Position numbers and translations under genes: made by a program
DNA from: Georgenia subflava
Lineage (GTDB): Bacteria; Actinomycetota; Actinomycetes; Actinomycetales; Actinomycetaceae
Direction of reading: 5' to 3'
Length of the DNA stretch: 64,000 bases
Assembly (NCBI RefSeq): GCF_009193155.1
Contig: NZ_VUKD01000004.1
Location: 62,001 to 126,000, forward strand
Notes under the pieces: model-generated
Databases searched by the model: none
The model's input: only the letters and a program-made list of their open reading frames with translations
Told to the model about the DNA's origin: nothing
Part shown: piece by piece, positions 57,484 to 62,503 of the stretch
How positions within the stretch are numbered: the stretch's first letter is position 1
How the letters are laid out: every line of letters begins with the position of its first letter

Positions 57484-58212
57484 TCAGGACGGCGACAAGG
57501 GGTCTCCCGGGCGGGTGACGCCGTCGGGCCTCGGCTCGTCGGCCGTCTCCCGGTCCGTCTCGAGCGCGCGCACGCAGCACCGGCCGGCCCCCGGGTCGGA
57601 GACGACGCGCACCGCGCAGTGGGGCACACCCTCGGTCACGCCGCGCAGCAGCTCGTAGTTCAGCTCGCACACCAGCTCGGTATGTCGCTGCGCCAGCTGG
57701 TGGAACGGGCAGTTGCCCATGACGATGCCACCTGCCGGATCCTCCCGCGGCTCGAATCCGCCGTCGACGAGCGCATCCTCGAAGCTGGCGGCGCGCGCGC
57801 CCGCAGCCCGGCCCGCGTCGACGGCGACCCGACGCAGCACCGTGCGTACCGGTTCGCCGCTCGTCGCGGCGGTGCTGATCGCCTGCGCGAACAGCTCCGC
57901 GGCGAGCTCGTACCGGCGGCTCGGCACCGAGACGTTCGTCTCGGCAGCCGACCGCGAGTAGAGCTTCGCGGGTCGGCCGGCGCCCGGACCGCCCCGTCCG
58001 GCAGGACGGCGGAACTCCACGTCCAGCAGCCCCTCGTCGGCCAGCCGGTCGAGATGGAAGGCGGCGGTGCTCCGGGGGAGACCGAGCGCCTCGGCGGCGT
58101 CGTCCCGGCTCGTGCGCTCACGCCCGGACACCAGCTCGTACAGGGCGCGTCGGGTCGGGTCGTCGAGCGCCGAGACGGCGGAGACCCGGTCGGACCATTC
58201 CCGTGGGGACAT
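57484..58212 (-). CDS. SufR-like HTH regulator with C-terminal cysteine cluster
   Basis: This 242-residue regulator has an N-terminal winged-helix domain (ALDDPTRRALYELVSG ... LGLPRSTAAFHLDRLADEGLLDVEFRR, residues about 14-75) of the ArsR/SufR type and a C-terminal region with GNCPFHQLAQRHTELVCELNYELL and DPGAGRCCV. The spacing (Cys-Pro-Phe-His..., Val-Cys, later Cys-Cys) resembles SufR, whose cysteines bind an Fe-S cluster. It is divergent from folE and its likely target is the shared promoter palindrome. Redox, iron or a pterin could be the signal; that is inference. Confidence 0.8.
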   Translation of the reverse strand: MSPREWSDRVSAVSALDDPTRRALYELVSGRERTSRDDAAEALGLPRSTAAFHLDRLADEGLLDVEFRRPAGRGGPGAGRPAKLYSRSAAETNVSVPSRRYELAAELFAQAISTAATSGEPVRTVLRRVAVDAGRAAGARAASFEDALVDGGFEPREDPAGGIVMGNCPFHQLAQRHTELVCELNYELLRGVTEGVPHCAVRVVSDPGAGRCCVRALETDRETADEPRPDGVTRPGDPLSPS

Positions 58213-58245
58213 GGCGGCAGTCTACTCCTCTAAAAACAAGATCGC

Positions 58246-58274
58246 TTGACTAAACGCTAGGAGCGGCCTAGCGT
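58246..58274 (+). promoter_or_regulatory. folE-operon promoter with palindromic operator
   Basis: TTGACT and TAGCGT are separated by exactly 17 bases. A perfect inverted repeat, CGCTAGG-agcgg-CCTAGCG (58255-58273), covers the spacer and the -10, so a bound regulator would block RNA polymerase. A second small inverted repeat, caag-atcg-cttg (58238-58249), overlaps the -35. Repression by the divergent SufR-like protein is the simplest reading. Confidence 0.7.
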
Positions 58275-58413
58275 CGACATCAGACGAGGTTGTCGGGTGA
58301 TGTCGGGCGAGTTATCGGGCGACACCGTCGGGCAACGAGGTCGGGCGACGAGGAGGTTCAGCCATGGACTCGCGGACACAGGCTCCCACCGTGCGGACCG
58401 TGGGTGGTGAGCG

Positions 58414-59262
58414 GTGATGGCCACCACGACCGTCGACACGAATGCGATCGACCTCGCCGCCTATGTCGCGCGCGCCGTCGAGCCGTCCGACCCCTCGCCG
58501 GCCGTGGGCGCCGACGAGCCGCGTGATTTCTCGCCCTTCGAGCGTGTTGCCGACGGGCGACGCGCCCTCTCAGCGGCCGTGCGCGCCGACGAGCGGCGTG
58601 ACCTCCTGCCCACCGAGCGCCTTGCCGACGAGCGACGTGACCTCCCGTCCCCGGAGCACCTCGCCGTCGTTCCCCGGGACGAGCGCACCGTCGATCTTGC
58701 CGGCGCCCGTGCCGCCGTCGCCGCTCTGCTGACAGCGCTCGGTCGCGACACCGGCTCGGAGCACCTCGCCGACACCCCGCGCCGGGTCGCCGACGCCTAC
58801 GTCGAGATGCTCACCCCGCGCCCGTTCACGCTGACGACCTTCCCCAACGACGAGGGCTACGACGAGCTCGTCCTGGTGCGCGACGTCCCCTTCCACTCGC
58901 TCTGCGAGCACCACCTCCTGCCCTTCCACGGCGTCGCGCACATCGCCTACCTGCCCGGCGAGCGGATCGTCGGCCTCTCGAAGCTCGCCCGGGTGCTGGA
59001 GCACCTCGCCCGCGACCTCCAGGTGCAGGAGCGGCTCACCCAGCAGGTGGCCGACCTGCTGGACCAGCACCTGGCGCCACGAGGTGTCGGCGTCGTCCTC
59101 GAGGCCGAGCACATGTGCATGGCGCTGCGCGGGGTCGGCGTGACCGGCTCCCGCACCGTCACCTCGGCACTGCGGGGCGTCCTGCGTGAGGACGCCCGGT
59201 CCCGCGCCGAGTTCCTGGCCCTGGTCGGCGTCGGCACCGGCGGCCGTCACCCGGGCACCTGA
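58414..59262 (+). CDS. folE: GTP cyclohydrolase I with N-terminal extension
   Basis: This 282-residue protein has a C-terminal FolE domain of about 185 residues: LADTPRRVADAYVEML, then HSLCEHHLLPFHGVAHIAYLPGERIVGLSKLARVLEHLA with the zinc ligands (Cys and His of LCEHH) and EAEHMCMALRGV (the later Cys). FolE converts GTP to dihydroneopterin triphosphate. The first ~90 residues are not in typical FolE and contain a repeated ERVADGRR / ERLADERRDL motif; they may be disordered. GTG starts the frame, with an ATG next. The gene opens the accessory operon. The conserved folate block normally sits elsewhere in actinomycete chromosomes, so this may be a second copy. Confidence 0.93.
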   Translation: MMATTTVDTNAIDLAAYVARAVEPSDPSPAVGADEPRDFSPFERVADGRRALSAAVRADERRDLLPTERLADERRDLPSPEHLAVVPRDERTVDLAGARAAVAALLTALGRDTGSEHLADTPRRVADAYVEMLTPRPFTLTTFPNDEGYDELVLVRDVPFHSLCEHHLLPFHGVAHIAYLPGERIVGLSKLARVLEHLARDLQVQERLTQQVADLLDQHLAPRGVGVVLEAEHMCMALRGVGVTGSRTVTSALRGVLREDARSRAEFLALVGVGTGGRHPGT

Positions 59263-59313
59263 CACAGCTGCCGCGACCGCTCGGCCGCGGCATGAGGACG
59301 AAGGAGAGACGTC

Positions 59314-60567
59314 ATGTCGCAACCCAGAGGCATCGTCATCGTCGGCGGCGGGCTCGCCGGGGCGCGCGCCGCCCAGACGCTCCGCGAGGAGGGCTACGAG
59401 GACAGGATCGTCATCGTCGGCGAGGAGTCCGAGCGCCCCTACGAGCGTCCGCCCCTCTCCAAGGAGTACCTGGCCGGCACGGCCGAGCGAGAGGCCGGCT
59501 TCGTCCACCCCGAGGGCTGGTACAGCGAGCACGACGTCGAGCTGATCCTCGGCCGCCGCGTCACCGAGCTGGACCTGCCGGCGCACGAGGTGGCACTGGC
59601 GACGGGGGACCGACTGGCCTTCGACACGGTCCTGCTCGCGACGGGCGCGTCATCGCGCCGGTTGCGCGGCCCGGGGTCCGGCGAGGGGCTCGCGGGCGTG
59701 CACTACCTGCGCACCCGGGCCGAGTCGGACGCCCTGCGCACCGCCCTGGCCGACGGCGGACGCCGGGTCGTGATCGTGGGAGCGGGCTGGATCGGGCTCG
59801 AGATCGCTGCCGCCGCCCGCACGTACGGCAACGACGTCACGGTGCTCGGCCGGGAGACCGTCCCGCTCAGCCTCGCCCTCGGCGACGAGCTCGGCGAGCA
59901 CTTCGGCGCCCTGCACCGGGCGCACGGCGTCGACCTGCGGATGTCGACCTCGGTCGCCGAGATCCGCGGCACGGAGGGTGCGGTGACCGGCGTCGTGCTC
60001 GAGGACGGCGAGACCGTCCCGGCCGACGTCGTCGTGGTCGGCATCGGTGCGGTGCCGAACGACGAGCTGGCACGAGCCGCCGGGCTGGACGTCGACGGCG
60101 GCGTGATCGTCGACGAGCACCTGCGCAGCTCGCACCCGGATGTCTACGCCGTCGGCGACGTCGCCAAGGCGTTCCACCCCGTGCTCGGCCGGCACCTGCG
60201 GGTCGAGCACTGGGCCAACGCCCTCAACGCCGCCCCGATCGCGGCGCGGGCGATGCTCGGCCAGGACGTCGTCGACGACCTCGTCCCGTACTTCTACACC
60301 GACCAGTACGACCTCGGGATGGAGTACTCCGGCTACTTCGACCTCGCCCGGGACGCCGAGGTCGTCTACCGCGGCGACCCGGCAGGCGGGGAGTTCATCG
60401 CGTTCTGGGTCGCGGAGGAGAAGGTCGTCGCCGGCATGAACGTCAACGTCTGGGACGTCAGCCCGGCCATCGAGAAGCTGGTCCGCACGGCCCGACCGGT
60501 GGACCGAGCCCGGCTGCGCGACCTGGCGGTGCCGCTGGAGCAGCTGACCGCCCAGCCCGCCACGTGA
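59314..60567 (+). CDS. NAD(P)/FAD-dependent oxidoreductase (ferredoxin-reductase-like)
   Basis: This 417-residue flavoprotein has two dinucleotide folds: FAD site IVIVGGGLAGARAAQTLR near residue 8 and the NAD(P) site VVIVGAGWIGLEIAAAAR near residue 150, plus the conserved ATG block LLATGASSRRL and a C-terminal VYAVGDVAKAF. It matches the rubredoxin/ferredoxin reductase family (rhodocoxin or putidaredoxin reductase). No ferredoxin or P450 is linked. In this operon it could supply electrons to a pterin reduction or regenerate a cofactor. A strong RBS (gaaggagag) precedes the ATG. Confidence 0.9.
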   Translation: MSQPRGIVIVGGGLAGARAAQTLREEGYEDRIVIVGEESERPYERPPLSKEYLAGTAEREAGFVHPEGWYSEHDVELILGRRVTELDLPAHEVALATGDRLAFDTVLLATGASSRRLRGPGSGEGLAGVHYLRTRAESDALRTALADGGRRVVIVGAGWIGLEIAAAARTYGNDVTVLGRETVPLSLALGDELGEHFGALHRAHGVDLRMSTSVAEIRGTEGAVTGVVLEDGETVPADVVVVGIGAVPNDELARAAGLDVDGGVIVDEHLRSSHPDVYAVGDVAKAFHPVLGRHLRVEHWANALNAAPIAARAMLGQDVVDDLVPYFYTDQYDLGMEYSGYFDLARDAEVVYRGDPAGGEFIAFWVAEEKVVAGMNVNVWDVSPAIEKLVRTARPVDRARLRDLAVPLEQLTAQPAT

Positions 60568-60615
60568 CACCCGGCGTGGCGCTCCGCCCTCCGAGAGCCA
60601 CGCCGGGCCACGCTC

Positions 60616-60662
60616 GGTACGAGGTACGAGGTACGAGGTACGAGGTACGAGGTACGAGGTAC
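60616..60662. repeat. 7-base tandem repeat (ggtacga, 6.7 copies)
   Basis: An uninterrupted heptanucleotide tract runs between the FAD oxidoreductase gene and folP2. Because seven is not a multiple of three it would shift frame if coding, but it lies outside both genes. It could vary in length by replication slippage and so alter spacing in the operon. Confidence 0.95.
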
Positions 60663-60713
60663 ATCGACCCAGGACCTGAGCGGTACTGCCAGCCCGAGAG
60701 AGGAGTCCGGACC

Positions 60714-61787
60714 ATGGGCGTCACCACCCCGTCGGTCGTCACGACAGAACCGGCGGTCACCGACACGCCGGCCGTCGGCACCCCGCTGTCGGTTACCGAG
60801 CCCGCGCCGGTCGACACGACGACGCCGGTCGGCATGACGACGCCGGTCGACACGACCCCGCCGGCGGTCGGTACCCGACCGGTCGCCACCAGCCGAGCGC
60901 TCACCGGCCCAGCGCCCACGATCGCGCCCAGGCGTCGCATCGGCGTGCGCACCTTCGACCTCGCCACCCAGGTGGCGGTCATGGCGATCGTGAACCGCAC
61001 GCCCGACTCCTTCTACGACCGCGGCCGCACCTTCGCGCTCGACGCCGCCGTCGCGGGTGCGCTGCGAGCCGTCGAGCAGGGCGCGGACTGGGTCGACATC
61101 GGCGGGGTGCCCTTCTCCCCGGACACCCCGCCGGTCTCCGTCGCCGAGGAGCTCGACCGGGTGCTGCCGGTGGTCCAGGCCGTGCGCGCCACCTCCGACG
61201 TCGTCATCTCCGTCGACACCTACCGTCCCGAGGTCGCCGCCCGCTGCGTCGCCGCCGGTGCCGACGTCGTCAACGACACCTCGGGCCTGCGCGAGCCGGC
61301 CATGGCCGACGTCGTCGCCGCCACCGGCGCCACGATCGTGATCGCGCACTCGCTGGCCGCCCCGCACACCCACCACCCGCGGCCGACCTACGGCGACGTC
61401 GTCACCGAGGTCGCGGACTTCCTGCGCCAGCGCGTCGAGCTGGCGCGCGCCCGGGGCGTGCGGGACGAGCAGATCGTCATCGACCCCGGGCACGACCTCA
61501 ACAAGAACACCGACCACTCGCTCGAGCTCATCCGCCGGCTGCCCGAGATCGCCGCCCTGGGGTACCCGACCCTGGTCGCCCTGTCCCGCAAGGACTTCGT
61601 GGGCGAGACGCTCGGACGTCCCCGCTCGGACCGGCTGCCCGGGTCCCTCGCCGCCGCGGCACTCTGCGTCCTCGGCGGCGCCCGGATCGTGCGTACGCAC
61701 GACGTCGCAGCCACGGTCGACGCCGTCCGGATGACCGAGGCCGTGCTCGGCCTGCGTCGCCCCGTCGAGCACCGGCACAACAGGTAG
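60714..61787 (+). CDS. folP2: FolP2-like dihydropteroate synthase homologue
   Basis: This 357-residue protein has a Pro/Thr-rich N-terminal extension of about 75 residues (VDTTTPVGMTTPVDTTPP type) and a DHPS barrel. The barrel reads VAVMAIVNRTPDSFYDRGRTF, DIGGVPFSPDTPPVSV, VISVDTYRPEVAARC, VNDTSGLREPAM, IDPGHDLNKNTDHSLELIRRL and ALSRKDFVGETLG. The MAIVNRTPDSFYD and KNTDH blocks resemble mycobacterial FolP2 rather than FolP1; the pterin/pABA loop lacks the ESTRPG sequence of true DHPS. FolP2 proteins are reported not to provide DHPS activity, so another pterin reaction is possible. Strong RBS (agaggag). Confidence 0.88.
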   Translation: MGVTTPSVVTTEPAVTDTPAVGTPLSVTEPAPVDTTTPVGMTTPVDTTPPAVGTRPVATSRALTGPAPTIAPRRRIGVRTFDLATQVAVMAIVNRTPDSFYDRGRTFALDAAVAGALRAVEQGADWVDIGGVPFSPDTPPVSVAEELDRVLPVVQAVRATSDVVISVDTYRPEVAARCVAAGADVVNDTSGLREPAMADVVAATGATIVIAHSLAAPHTHHPRPTYGDVVTEVADFLRQRVELARARGVRDEQIVIDPGHDLNKNTDHSLELIRRLPEIAALGYPTLVALSRKDFVGETLGRPRSDRLPGSLAAAALCVLGGARIVRTHDVAATVDAVRMTEAVLGLRRPVEHRHNR

Positions 61788-61795
61788 GGACCGCA

Positions 61796-62503
61796 ATGTT
61801 CGACCCCGAGGAGCTCATCGACCGGTACTCCGTCGCCGACCGCGCGATCCCGCACCTGCGGGTGAACTTCATCGCCAGCATCGACGGCGCCGCCACGCAC
61901 CAGGGTCTGTCCGGACCGCTGAACAACGCCGACGACAAGCAGGTGTTCGACACGCTACGCATGCTCGCCGACGTCGTGCTGCTCGGCGCCGGCACCCTGC
62001 GCGACGAGGGCTACGGCGCGCTGCGGCTCGACGACGCGGCTGTCGACTGGCGGCTCAAGCACGGGCTCCCGGCCCATCCCACGCTCGCCGTCGTCTCCTC
62101 CCGGCTGAACCTCGACGCCGACATGGCCGCACTCGCCGGCGCCCCGACCCGCCCGCTGGTGCTGACCCACGACGCCTCGCCCGCCGAGCGGCGTCTCGCG
62201 CTCGCCGAGGTGTGCGACGTCGTCCCCTGCGGGGAGCGGTCCGTCCAGCCGGCGCTGGTCCGCGCCGCACTCGAGCGCCGCGAGCTCAACCAGGTGCTGT
62301 GCGAGGGCGGTCCCCACCTGCTCGGCACGCTCGTCGCCGCCGACGCCGTCGACGAGCTGTGCCTGACGATCAGCCCCGTCCTCGAGGGTGGGGACGCGGG
62401 CCGAATCAGCGTTGGCGGTGCCCAGGCCACCAGGCCCATGCGGCTGGCGCACGTGCTGACCGCCGGCGACATGCTGATGCTCCGCTACCTCCGCGAGAGG
62501 TGA
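61796..62503 (+). CDS. RibD-C/DHFR-fold pyrimidine reductase family protein (Rv2671-like)
   Basis: This 235-residue protein has the RibD reductase/DHFR fold: HLRVNFIASIDGAATHQGLSG, DVVLLGAGTLRDEGYG, LNQVLCEGGPHLLGTLV and DELCLTISPVLEGGDAGRI. This is the pattern of mycobacterial Rv2671, a RibD homologue shown to act as an alternative dihydrofolate reductase. It starts 8 bases after folP2 with a good RBS (aggg), so the pair is tightly linked. In this operon it may reduce a folate, pterin or other deaminated substrate rather than serve riboflavin synthesis, as no deaminase domain is present. Confidence 0.88.
   Translation: MFDPEELIDRYSVADRAIPHLRVNFIASIDGAATHQGLSGPLNNADDKQVFDTLRMLADVVLLGAGTLRDEGYGALRLDDAAVDWRLKHGLPAHPTLAVVSSRLNLDADMAALAGAPTRPLVLTHDASPAERRLALAEVCDVVPCGERSVQPALVRAALERRELNQVLCEGGPHLLGTLVAADAVDELCLTISPVLEGGDAGRISVGGAQATRPMRLAHVLTAGDMLMLRYLRER

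What the first reader, a model, noticed from the sequence alone, without database searches (positions are those of the whole stretch)
57484..62503. Self-contained accessory pterin/folate operon under a SufR-like switch
A cysteine-cluster SufR-like regulator is divergent from folE, an NAD(P)/FAD oxidoreductase, a FolP2-type DHPS homologue (no ESTRPG loop) and an Rv2671-like RibD/DHFR-fold reductase. A perfect palindrome sits over the operon -10. The folB, folK and folA steps are absent from the cluster. Known facts: FolP2 paralogues lack proven DHPS activity, and Rv2671 can act as a DHFR. The inference is an alternative route to a reduced pterin or folate analogue, controlled by Fe-S or redox state.
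Basis: partly seen in the sequence, partly recalled or inferred. Interest (0 to 1): 0.8.

Follow-up and report, generated by a model that had tools for sequence, protein, structure and literature searches.

The report
Accessory pterin pathway with altered DHPS
Many actinobacteria carry a spare folate-like gene set whose key enzyme keeps the pterin pocket of the sulfa-drug target but has lost the part that grips p-aminobenzoate, so it probably builds a reduced pterin other than folate; which compound it makes is unknown.

Summary
A Cys-rich HTH regulator (57484-58212, -) diverges from folE, an HcaD-like flavin reductase, a DHPS homologue and an Rv2671-like reductase (58414-62503). Corrections: the DHPS-like protein is not FolP2 proper but a sister group ("FolP3", my label); the palindrome occurs in 1 of 16 aligned promoters, whereas an A-rich box and -35/-10 elements recur; and the cluster needs FolB/FolK from outside. 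FolP3 keeps pterin and diphosphate residues, but lacks ESTRPG and has Asp at the pABA-carboxylate position, so pABA is an unlikely substrate. The reductase directly follows FolP3 in 58 of 80 named loci. FolP2/FolP3 and the reductase co-occur (both 25, one 5, neither 69 of 99 relatives; 138/34/25 of 197 class genomes), and FolP2 itself adjoins it in two other families. This ties together two mycobacterial orphans, FolP2 and Rv2671. Best reading: a regulated route to a non-pABA tetrahydropterin. Product, nucleophile and signal are inferred.

The parts
57484..58212 (-). Winged-helix regulator (242 aa) with C168-x13-C182-x29-C212-C213
   Evidence: HTH_20; the NCPFH, VC and CC cysteines are kept in all 17 aligned rows, 16 distinct loci
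58228..58239 (.). CTCTAAAAACAA box in the divergent promoter, candidate operator
   Evidence: TCTAAA box seen in 14 of 16 aligned promoters; the 26-base core starting at 58229 has no second match (up to 3 mismatches) in the genome
58246..58274 (+). Promoter-like TTGACT-N17-TAGCGT
   Evidence: TTGAC exact in 15 of 16 promoters; CCTA or TCTA about 20 bases on in all 16 by eye
58254..58274 (.).
   Evidence: 1 of 16 promoters; 73 of 2000 shuffles hold a similar one
58414..59262 (+). GTP cyclohydrolase I (FolE); ATG at 58417 is the likely start; variable N-terminal ~90 aa
   Evidence: PF01227 6e-63; TIGR00063 195.1 bits, cut-off 181.6
59314..60567 (+). FAD/NAD(P) oxidoreductase with Reductase_C domain (FDR)
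   Evidence: best PDB match 3lxd 4e-76
60714..61787 (+). DHPS-like protein, 'FolP3' (core from about residue 74)
   Evidence: PF00809 3e-72; separate clade; model pLDDT 91.7, pTM 0.91
61796..62503 (+). RibD_C-fold reductase of Rv2671 type
   Evidence: PF01872 2.6e-30; Rv2671 4xrb 1.2e-42

Best explanation
An accessory, regulated pterin pathway. FolE adds 7,8-dihydroneopterin triphosphate from GTP; the housekeeping FolB-FolK fusion makes 6-hydroxymethyl-dihydropterin diphosphate; FolP3 activates this in a DHPS-like pocket but joins it to a nucleophile other than pABA; the Rv2671-type enzyme reduces the dihydropterin product to the tetrahydro form; the flavin reductase supplies or recycles reducing power. 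A SufR-like regulator, probably carrying an Fe-S cluster, controls the divergent promoter. Shown: gene set, accessory status, conserved order, co-occurrence, residue patterns. Inferred: all chemistry after FolE, the use of FolB/FolK, the product, the role of the flavin reductase, and the signal.
For: Housekeeping folE, folP1, folB-folK fusion and thyA-folA elsewhere. N94, D168, N187, D257, K264, K293, R327, H329 kept in all 31 aligned DHPS-type rows (FolP1, FolP2, FolP3), while ESTRPG is lost and the residue after the catalytic Lys is Asp in 16 of 17 FolP3 and 10 of 10 FolP2 rows against Thr/Arg in 4 of 4 FolP1 rows (in 41 FolP3 rows D294 is 41 of 41 and D168 39 of 41). That position contacts the pABA carboxylate in Sul2 (Ser214 after Lys213; PMC10328974, passages). 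Reductase directly downstream of folP3 in 58 of 80 named loci. Co-occurrence in 99 and 197 genomes. FolP2-clade genes adjoin the reductase in G195, G202 and G262, and lie about 3 kb from it in G103. Antifolate-contact residues of Rv2671 conserved in 59, 60 and 60 of 60 rows.
Against: The NCBIfam DHPS equivalog model accepts the protein well above cut-off (288.6 against 162.6 bits). In H37Ra, folP2 deletion raises sulfamethoxazole sensitivity (PMC7809127, passages), which a back-up folate role would also explain. 19 of 80 loci carry folP3 without a reductase within 5 kb; 34 of 197 class genomes have only one of the two genes. No gene for a nucleophile recurs in the module. D294 is Asn in one of 17 rows.
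Confidence: 0.5

Rival explanations
1. Stress-induced back-up folate route: FolP3 still makes dihydropteroate, perhaps less sensitive to pABA mimics, and the reductase serves as a spare DHFR; folE raises flux.
For: DHPS equivalog score; Rv2671 is described as a DHFR functional analogue (title of Cheng and Sacchettini, seen in the reference list of PMC10530724); folP2 deletion raises sulfamethoxazole sensitivity (PMC7809127).
Against: pABA-site residues lost or charge-reversed; M. leprae folP2 does not complement E. coli folP (PMC1971073, passages); all four Sul models far below cut-off.
Confidence: 0.22
2. Pterin salvage or repair: FolP3 binds or clears pterin intermediates without joining them to an amine, and the two reductases re-reduce oxidised pterins under stress.
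For: Two redox enzymes and a Cys-rich regulator in the operon.
Against: Diphosphate-site residues as well as pterin residues are invariant; the full operon adds folE, a synthesis gene.
Confidence: 0.12
3. The reductase belongs to riboflavin synthesis and its place here is incidental.
For: RibD_C family; nearest NCBIfam models are named pyrimidine reductase family protein.
Against: 58 of 80 direct adjacency and co-occurrence; the genome has 12 other RibD_C matches, two scoring higher than this one (156.6 and 137.5 against 106 bits).
Confidence: 0.06

Closest known systems
Mycobacterial FolP2 (M. tuberculosis DHPS 2, PDB 2vp8)
   Same: NRT-DSF motif, lost ESTRPG, Asp after the catalytic Lys; best solved match; its clade also adjoins the reductase in G195, G202, G262.
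   Different: Separate clade; FolP3-only Phe134, Leu262, Asn263 and C-terminal His355-Asn356; other neighbours at most FolP2 loci.
Rv2671 (PDB 4xrb), RibD/DHFR-fold reductase
   Same: Best solved match; N24, D47, E170 conserved.
   Different: In an operon with folP3; 176.8-178 bits, below the cut-offs (184, 226, 274) of the three PRK14059 models.
SufR (Rv1460 type)
   Same: HTH plus a C-terminal cysteine set: C-x13-C-x28/29-CC against C203-x12-C216-x27-C244 (PMC6034842, passages).
   Different: No suf genes beside it; faces a pterin operon.
Canonical DHPS and Sul1-3
   Same: TIM-barrel fold, pterin pocket.
   Different: pABA-site residues replaced; Sul1-4 scores 120-185 bits against cut-offs of 475-600.

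Membership tests
Dihydropteroate synthase | DHPS sequence model and fold | tested here: met
   TIGR01496 288.6 bits, cut-off 162.6; top 50 PDB fold matches listed are DHPS entries
Dihydropteroate synthase | Pterin and diphosphate residues | tested here: met
   Eight positions identical in all 31 rows; roles partly from PMC10328974, partly recalled
Dihydropteroate synthase | pABA site: ESTRPG loop 2 and the residue after the catalytic Lys | tested here: not met
Dihydropteroate synthase | Catalysis with pABA | not testable with these tools
   No assay
FolP2 | Falls in the FolP2 clade | tested here: not met
   FolP2 100/97 (10 rows) and 97/99 (13 rows) without it; its own group has 92/94 and 92/91, short of the starred level
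FolP2 | Shared FolP2 neighbours (clusters c6-c8) | tested here: not met
   Seen at 7 of 10 FolP2 loci, at none of the 17 FolP3 loci fetched (two of these are contigs under 5 kb)
Rv2671 family | Best solved match and antifolate-contact residues | tested here: met
   contacts from a simulation paper, numbering offset of 12 inferred
Rv2671 family | NCBIfam PRK14059 cut-offs | tested here: not met
   176.8-178 bits against 184-274
SufR | HTH plus three-cysteine cluster motif | tested here: met
SufR | Fe-S cluster bound | not testable with these tools
   No spectra
SufR | Next to suf genes | tested here: not met
   Neighbours are ku and folE
GTP cyclohydrolase I | Equivalog cut-off | tested here: met
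   TIGR00063 195.1, cut-off 181.6
HcaD/AndAa dioxygenase ferredoxin reductase | Equivalog cut-off and a partner ferredoxin or dioxygenase gene | tested here: not met
   335.7 of 650 and 329.7 of 450 bits; none in the operon

The most novel reading that the evidence does not exclude
FolP2/FolP3-type DHPS relatives and Rv2671-type reductases together form a widespread actinobacterial pathway to a tetrahydropterin cofactor other than folate, with the pABA unit replaced by an uncharged or cationic amine. Some lineages pack it with its own folE, flavin reductase and Fe-S switch; most others, mycobacteria included, keep the two genes apart.
Probability: 0.3. Interest if true: 0.9.

Novelty: new variant of a known kind. 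Interest (0 to 1): 0.6.

Why it matters
FolP2 and Rv2671 are orphan members of actinobacterial folate biology, each with an antifolate phenotype but no agreed function. Shared operons, co-occurrence and a shared change at the pABA-carboxylate position put them in one pathway, and the five-gene version in non-pathogenic soil bacteria makes product and signal directly testable. One search for papers holding both 'folP2' and 'Rv2671' found none in the held open-access library; PMC7809127 mentions folP2 and ribD mutations side by side as drug-response genes without, in the passages seen, linking them. Other searches showed no description of this operon in their listings. Most subscription papers are not held.

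Tried and rejected
Palindrome as operator: not conserved. FolP2 orthology: not supported. Sul-type resistance enzyme: models far below cut-off. Archaeal-type methanopterin route: RFAP synthase TIGR00144 gives no match in this genome, while 4 of 14 control genomes ring. Extra pathway genes in the module: I saw none recurrent; an aminotransferase sits two genes or one gene upstream of folP3 in two loci (L059, L081), an SDR in two (L059, L154), a DoxX-like gene in two (L096, L102). A guess that one regulator paralogue lies beside an NnrS protein had no Pfam support. Plasmid spread: at E 1e-60 one record only, an 11.85-Mb Nonomuraea record. A paper on a sulfonamide-degrading Leucobacter holds only a Sul1 (PMC6868719, one passage). 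Loci with folP3 alone remain unexplained.

Full report
What is there. The window is G000:C6:62001-126000 of a 4.32-Mb genome. The same-genus relative G004 carries the locus on a contig of 654780 bases, the length of the named Georgenia ruanii record behind L094, so the genus is most likely Georgenia (inference). A regulator (57484-58212, -) diverges from folE (58414-59262), a flavin reductase (59314-60567), a DHPS homologue (60714-61787) and a RibD_C reductase (61796-62503). Gaps within the operon are 51, 146 and 8 bases.

Accessory status. The genome has three Pterin_bind matches: FolP1, ours, and one in a 1212-codon open frame that I take for MetH by length. It has two GTP cyclohydrolase I matches, one DHFR and 13 RibD_C matches. 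folE, folP1 and a FolB-HPPK fusion are adjacent on contig C4; thyA and folA on C7. The cluster therefore adds a second entry enzyme and late-step relatives beside a housekeeping set.

A sister group of FolP2. In a 31-row tree, FolP1 (4 rows) splits from the rest with 100/99; FolP2 (10 rows) has 100/97 and the window group (17 rows) 92/94, short of the starred level. A second tree with nine new rows and without three long branches gives 97/99 (13 rows) and 92/91 (21 rows) (its bootstrap had not settled). Neighbour clusters c6, c7 or c8 occur at 7 of 10 FolP2 loci and at none of the 17 window-group loci. De Crecy-Lagard et al. report that folP2 of high-GC Gram-positives clusters with cell wall genes and that M. 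leprae folP2 does not complement an E. coli folP mutant (PMC1971073, passages). An AlphaFold2 model on a 41-row alignment is confident (pLDDT 91.7, pTM 0.91), and its 50 listed PDB matches are DHPS entries.

The pocket. Positions N94, D168, N187, D257, K264, K293, R327 and H329 are identical in all 31 rows (in a wider set of 41 FolP3 rows D168 is Asp in 39 and Glu in 2). Loop 2 is changed: the Thr-Arg of ESTRPG is Phe-Ser/Ala in 17 of 17 window-group rows and Ala-Gly/Ala in 10 of 10 FolP2 rows. The residue after the catalytic Lys is Thr or Arg in 4 of 4 FolP1 rows, Asp in 10 of 10 FolP2 rows, and Asp in 16 and Asn in 1 of 17 window-group rows; it is Arg in 7l6p and Ser in 5umg. In Sul2 this residue, Ser214 after Lys213, touches the pABA carboxylate, and loops 1 and 2 form the pABA site once diphosphate is bound (PMC10328974, passages). 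An acidic residue there should disfavour a carboxylate. The window group alone has Leu262, Asn263 and a C-terminal His355-Asn356 (17 of 17; His-Asn 41 of 41 in the wider set). I read this as: activation of the pterin diphosphate kept, nucleophile changed. That is inference.

Synteny. The reductase is directly downstream of folP3 in 58 of 80, elsewhere within 5 kb in 3, and absent in 19; folE is upstream in 21, the flavin reductase in 21, and all five genes are present in 12 (looser windows give 13). Most of the 19 without a reductase are Nonomuraea and Actinoplanes-type records. In L177-L179 the flavin reductase, folP3 and reductase genes overlap by one to four bases.

Co-occurrence. A FolP2/3 profile separates these (352 bits or more) from FolP1 (229 or less) in 31 proteins. 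Over 99 relatives it finds the same 27 genomes that I had classed by tree; with the reductase this gives 25 both, 2 FolP2/3 only, 3 reductase only, 69 neither (p 6e-18). Over 197 class genomes: 138, 17, 17, 25 (p 4e-10); without the eight genomes shared with the first set, 133, 17, 17, 22. Fisher tests ignore relatedness, so the p values overstate. Within families of the first set, both genes come and go together in f1 (the genus), f5, f17 and f19, but G042, G065, G087, G091 and the 73%-complete G097 are discordant. New adjacencies are better evidence: the FolP2-clade gene overlaps the reductase gene in G195, lies about 0.7 kb upstream of it in G202 and G262 (one genus), and about 3 kb from it in G103.

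Reductase. The best solved match is Rv2671. Asn32, Asp55 and Glu181, which contact an antifolate in a simulation study (PMC10530724, passages), map with a constant offset of 12 (my inference) to N24, D47 and E170, conserved in 59, 60 and 60 of 60 rows.

Regulator and promoter. All 17 aligned regulators (16 distinct loci) keep C-x13-C-x28/29-CC; Rv1460 binds an Fe-S cluster and needs C203, C216 and C244 (PMC6034842, passages). Of 16 promoters, TTGAC is exact in 15 and the A-rich box is present in 14 (not in L097, L149); the palindrome is in the window alone. A paralogous regulator in this genome sits beside hemerythrin, WhiB and ferredoxin genes. This fits redox or Fe-S sensing but does not show it.

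Genetic hints. folP2 deletion in H37Ra raised sulfamethoxazole sensitivity, although FolP2 had been predicted to lack DHPS activity; the same paper mentions ribD mutations in PAS resistance (PMC7809127, passages). Both my reading and the back-up folate rival can accommodate this.

Verdict. Real, conserved and accessory. Its main value is a testable link between two orphan enzyme families; the product remains unknown.

Noticed in passing
60616-60662: Perfect 7-bp tandem repeat (GGTACGA, 6.7 copies) between the flavin reductase and folP3 genes.
   Followed up: partly
58488-58666 and 60805-60864: The variable N-terminal stretches of FolE and FolP3 are coded by tandem repeats (periods 75/39 and 18); relatives align only from about residue 90 and 70 on.
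   Followed up: partly
L096:5418-5834 and L102: A small DoxX-like membrane gene lies between the regulator and folE (DoxX 3.3e-4, just under the Pfam cut-off).
   Followed up: partly
L110:3000-3401 and 7 other members of cluster c24: A small protein family without Pfam match lies near folP3 in Nonomuraea (L110, L120), Curtobacterium-type loci, L114 and L153.
   Followed up: no
L166 (own genome C3:62973-63560) and L167 (C7:309619-310143): Paralogues of the regulator with similar cysteines; L166 has hemerythrin, WhiB and ferredoxin genes around it, and L167 looks alike by eye.
   Followed up: partly
L173:6874-7515 and L174:3966-4721: A protein beginning with a CPxxPxLxPEL/DL-like motif adjoins FolP2 in two unrelated genomes; no Pfam match for the L173 copy.
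   Followed up: no
L115, L124: folP3 with a reductase on contigs labelled Burkholderiales and Acidobacteria MAGs; could be misbinning or transfer.
   Followed up: no
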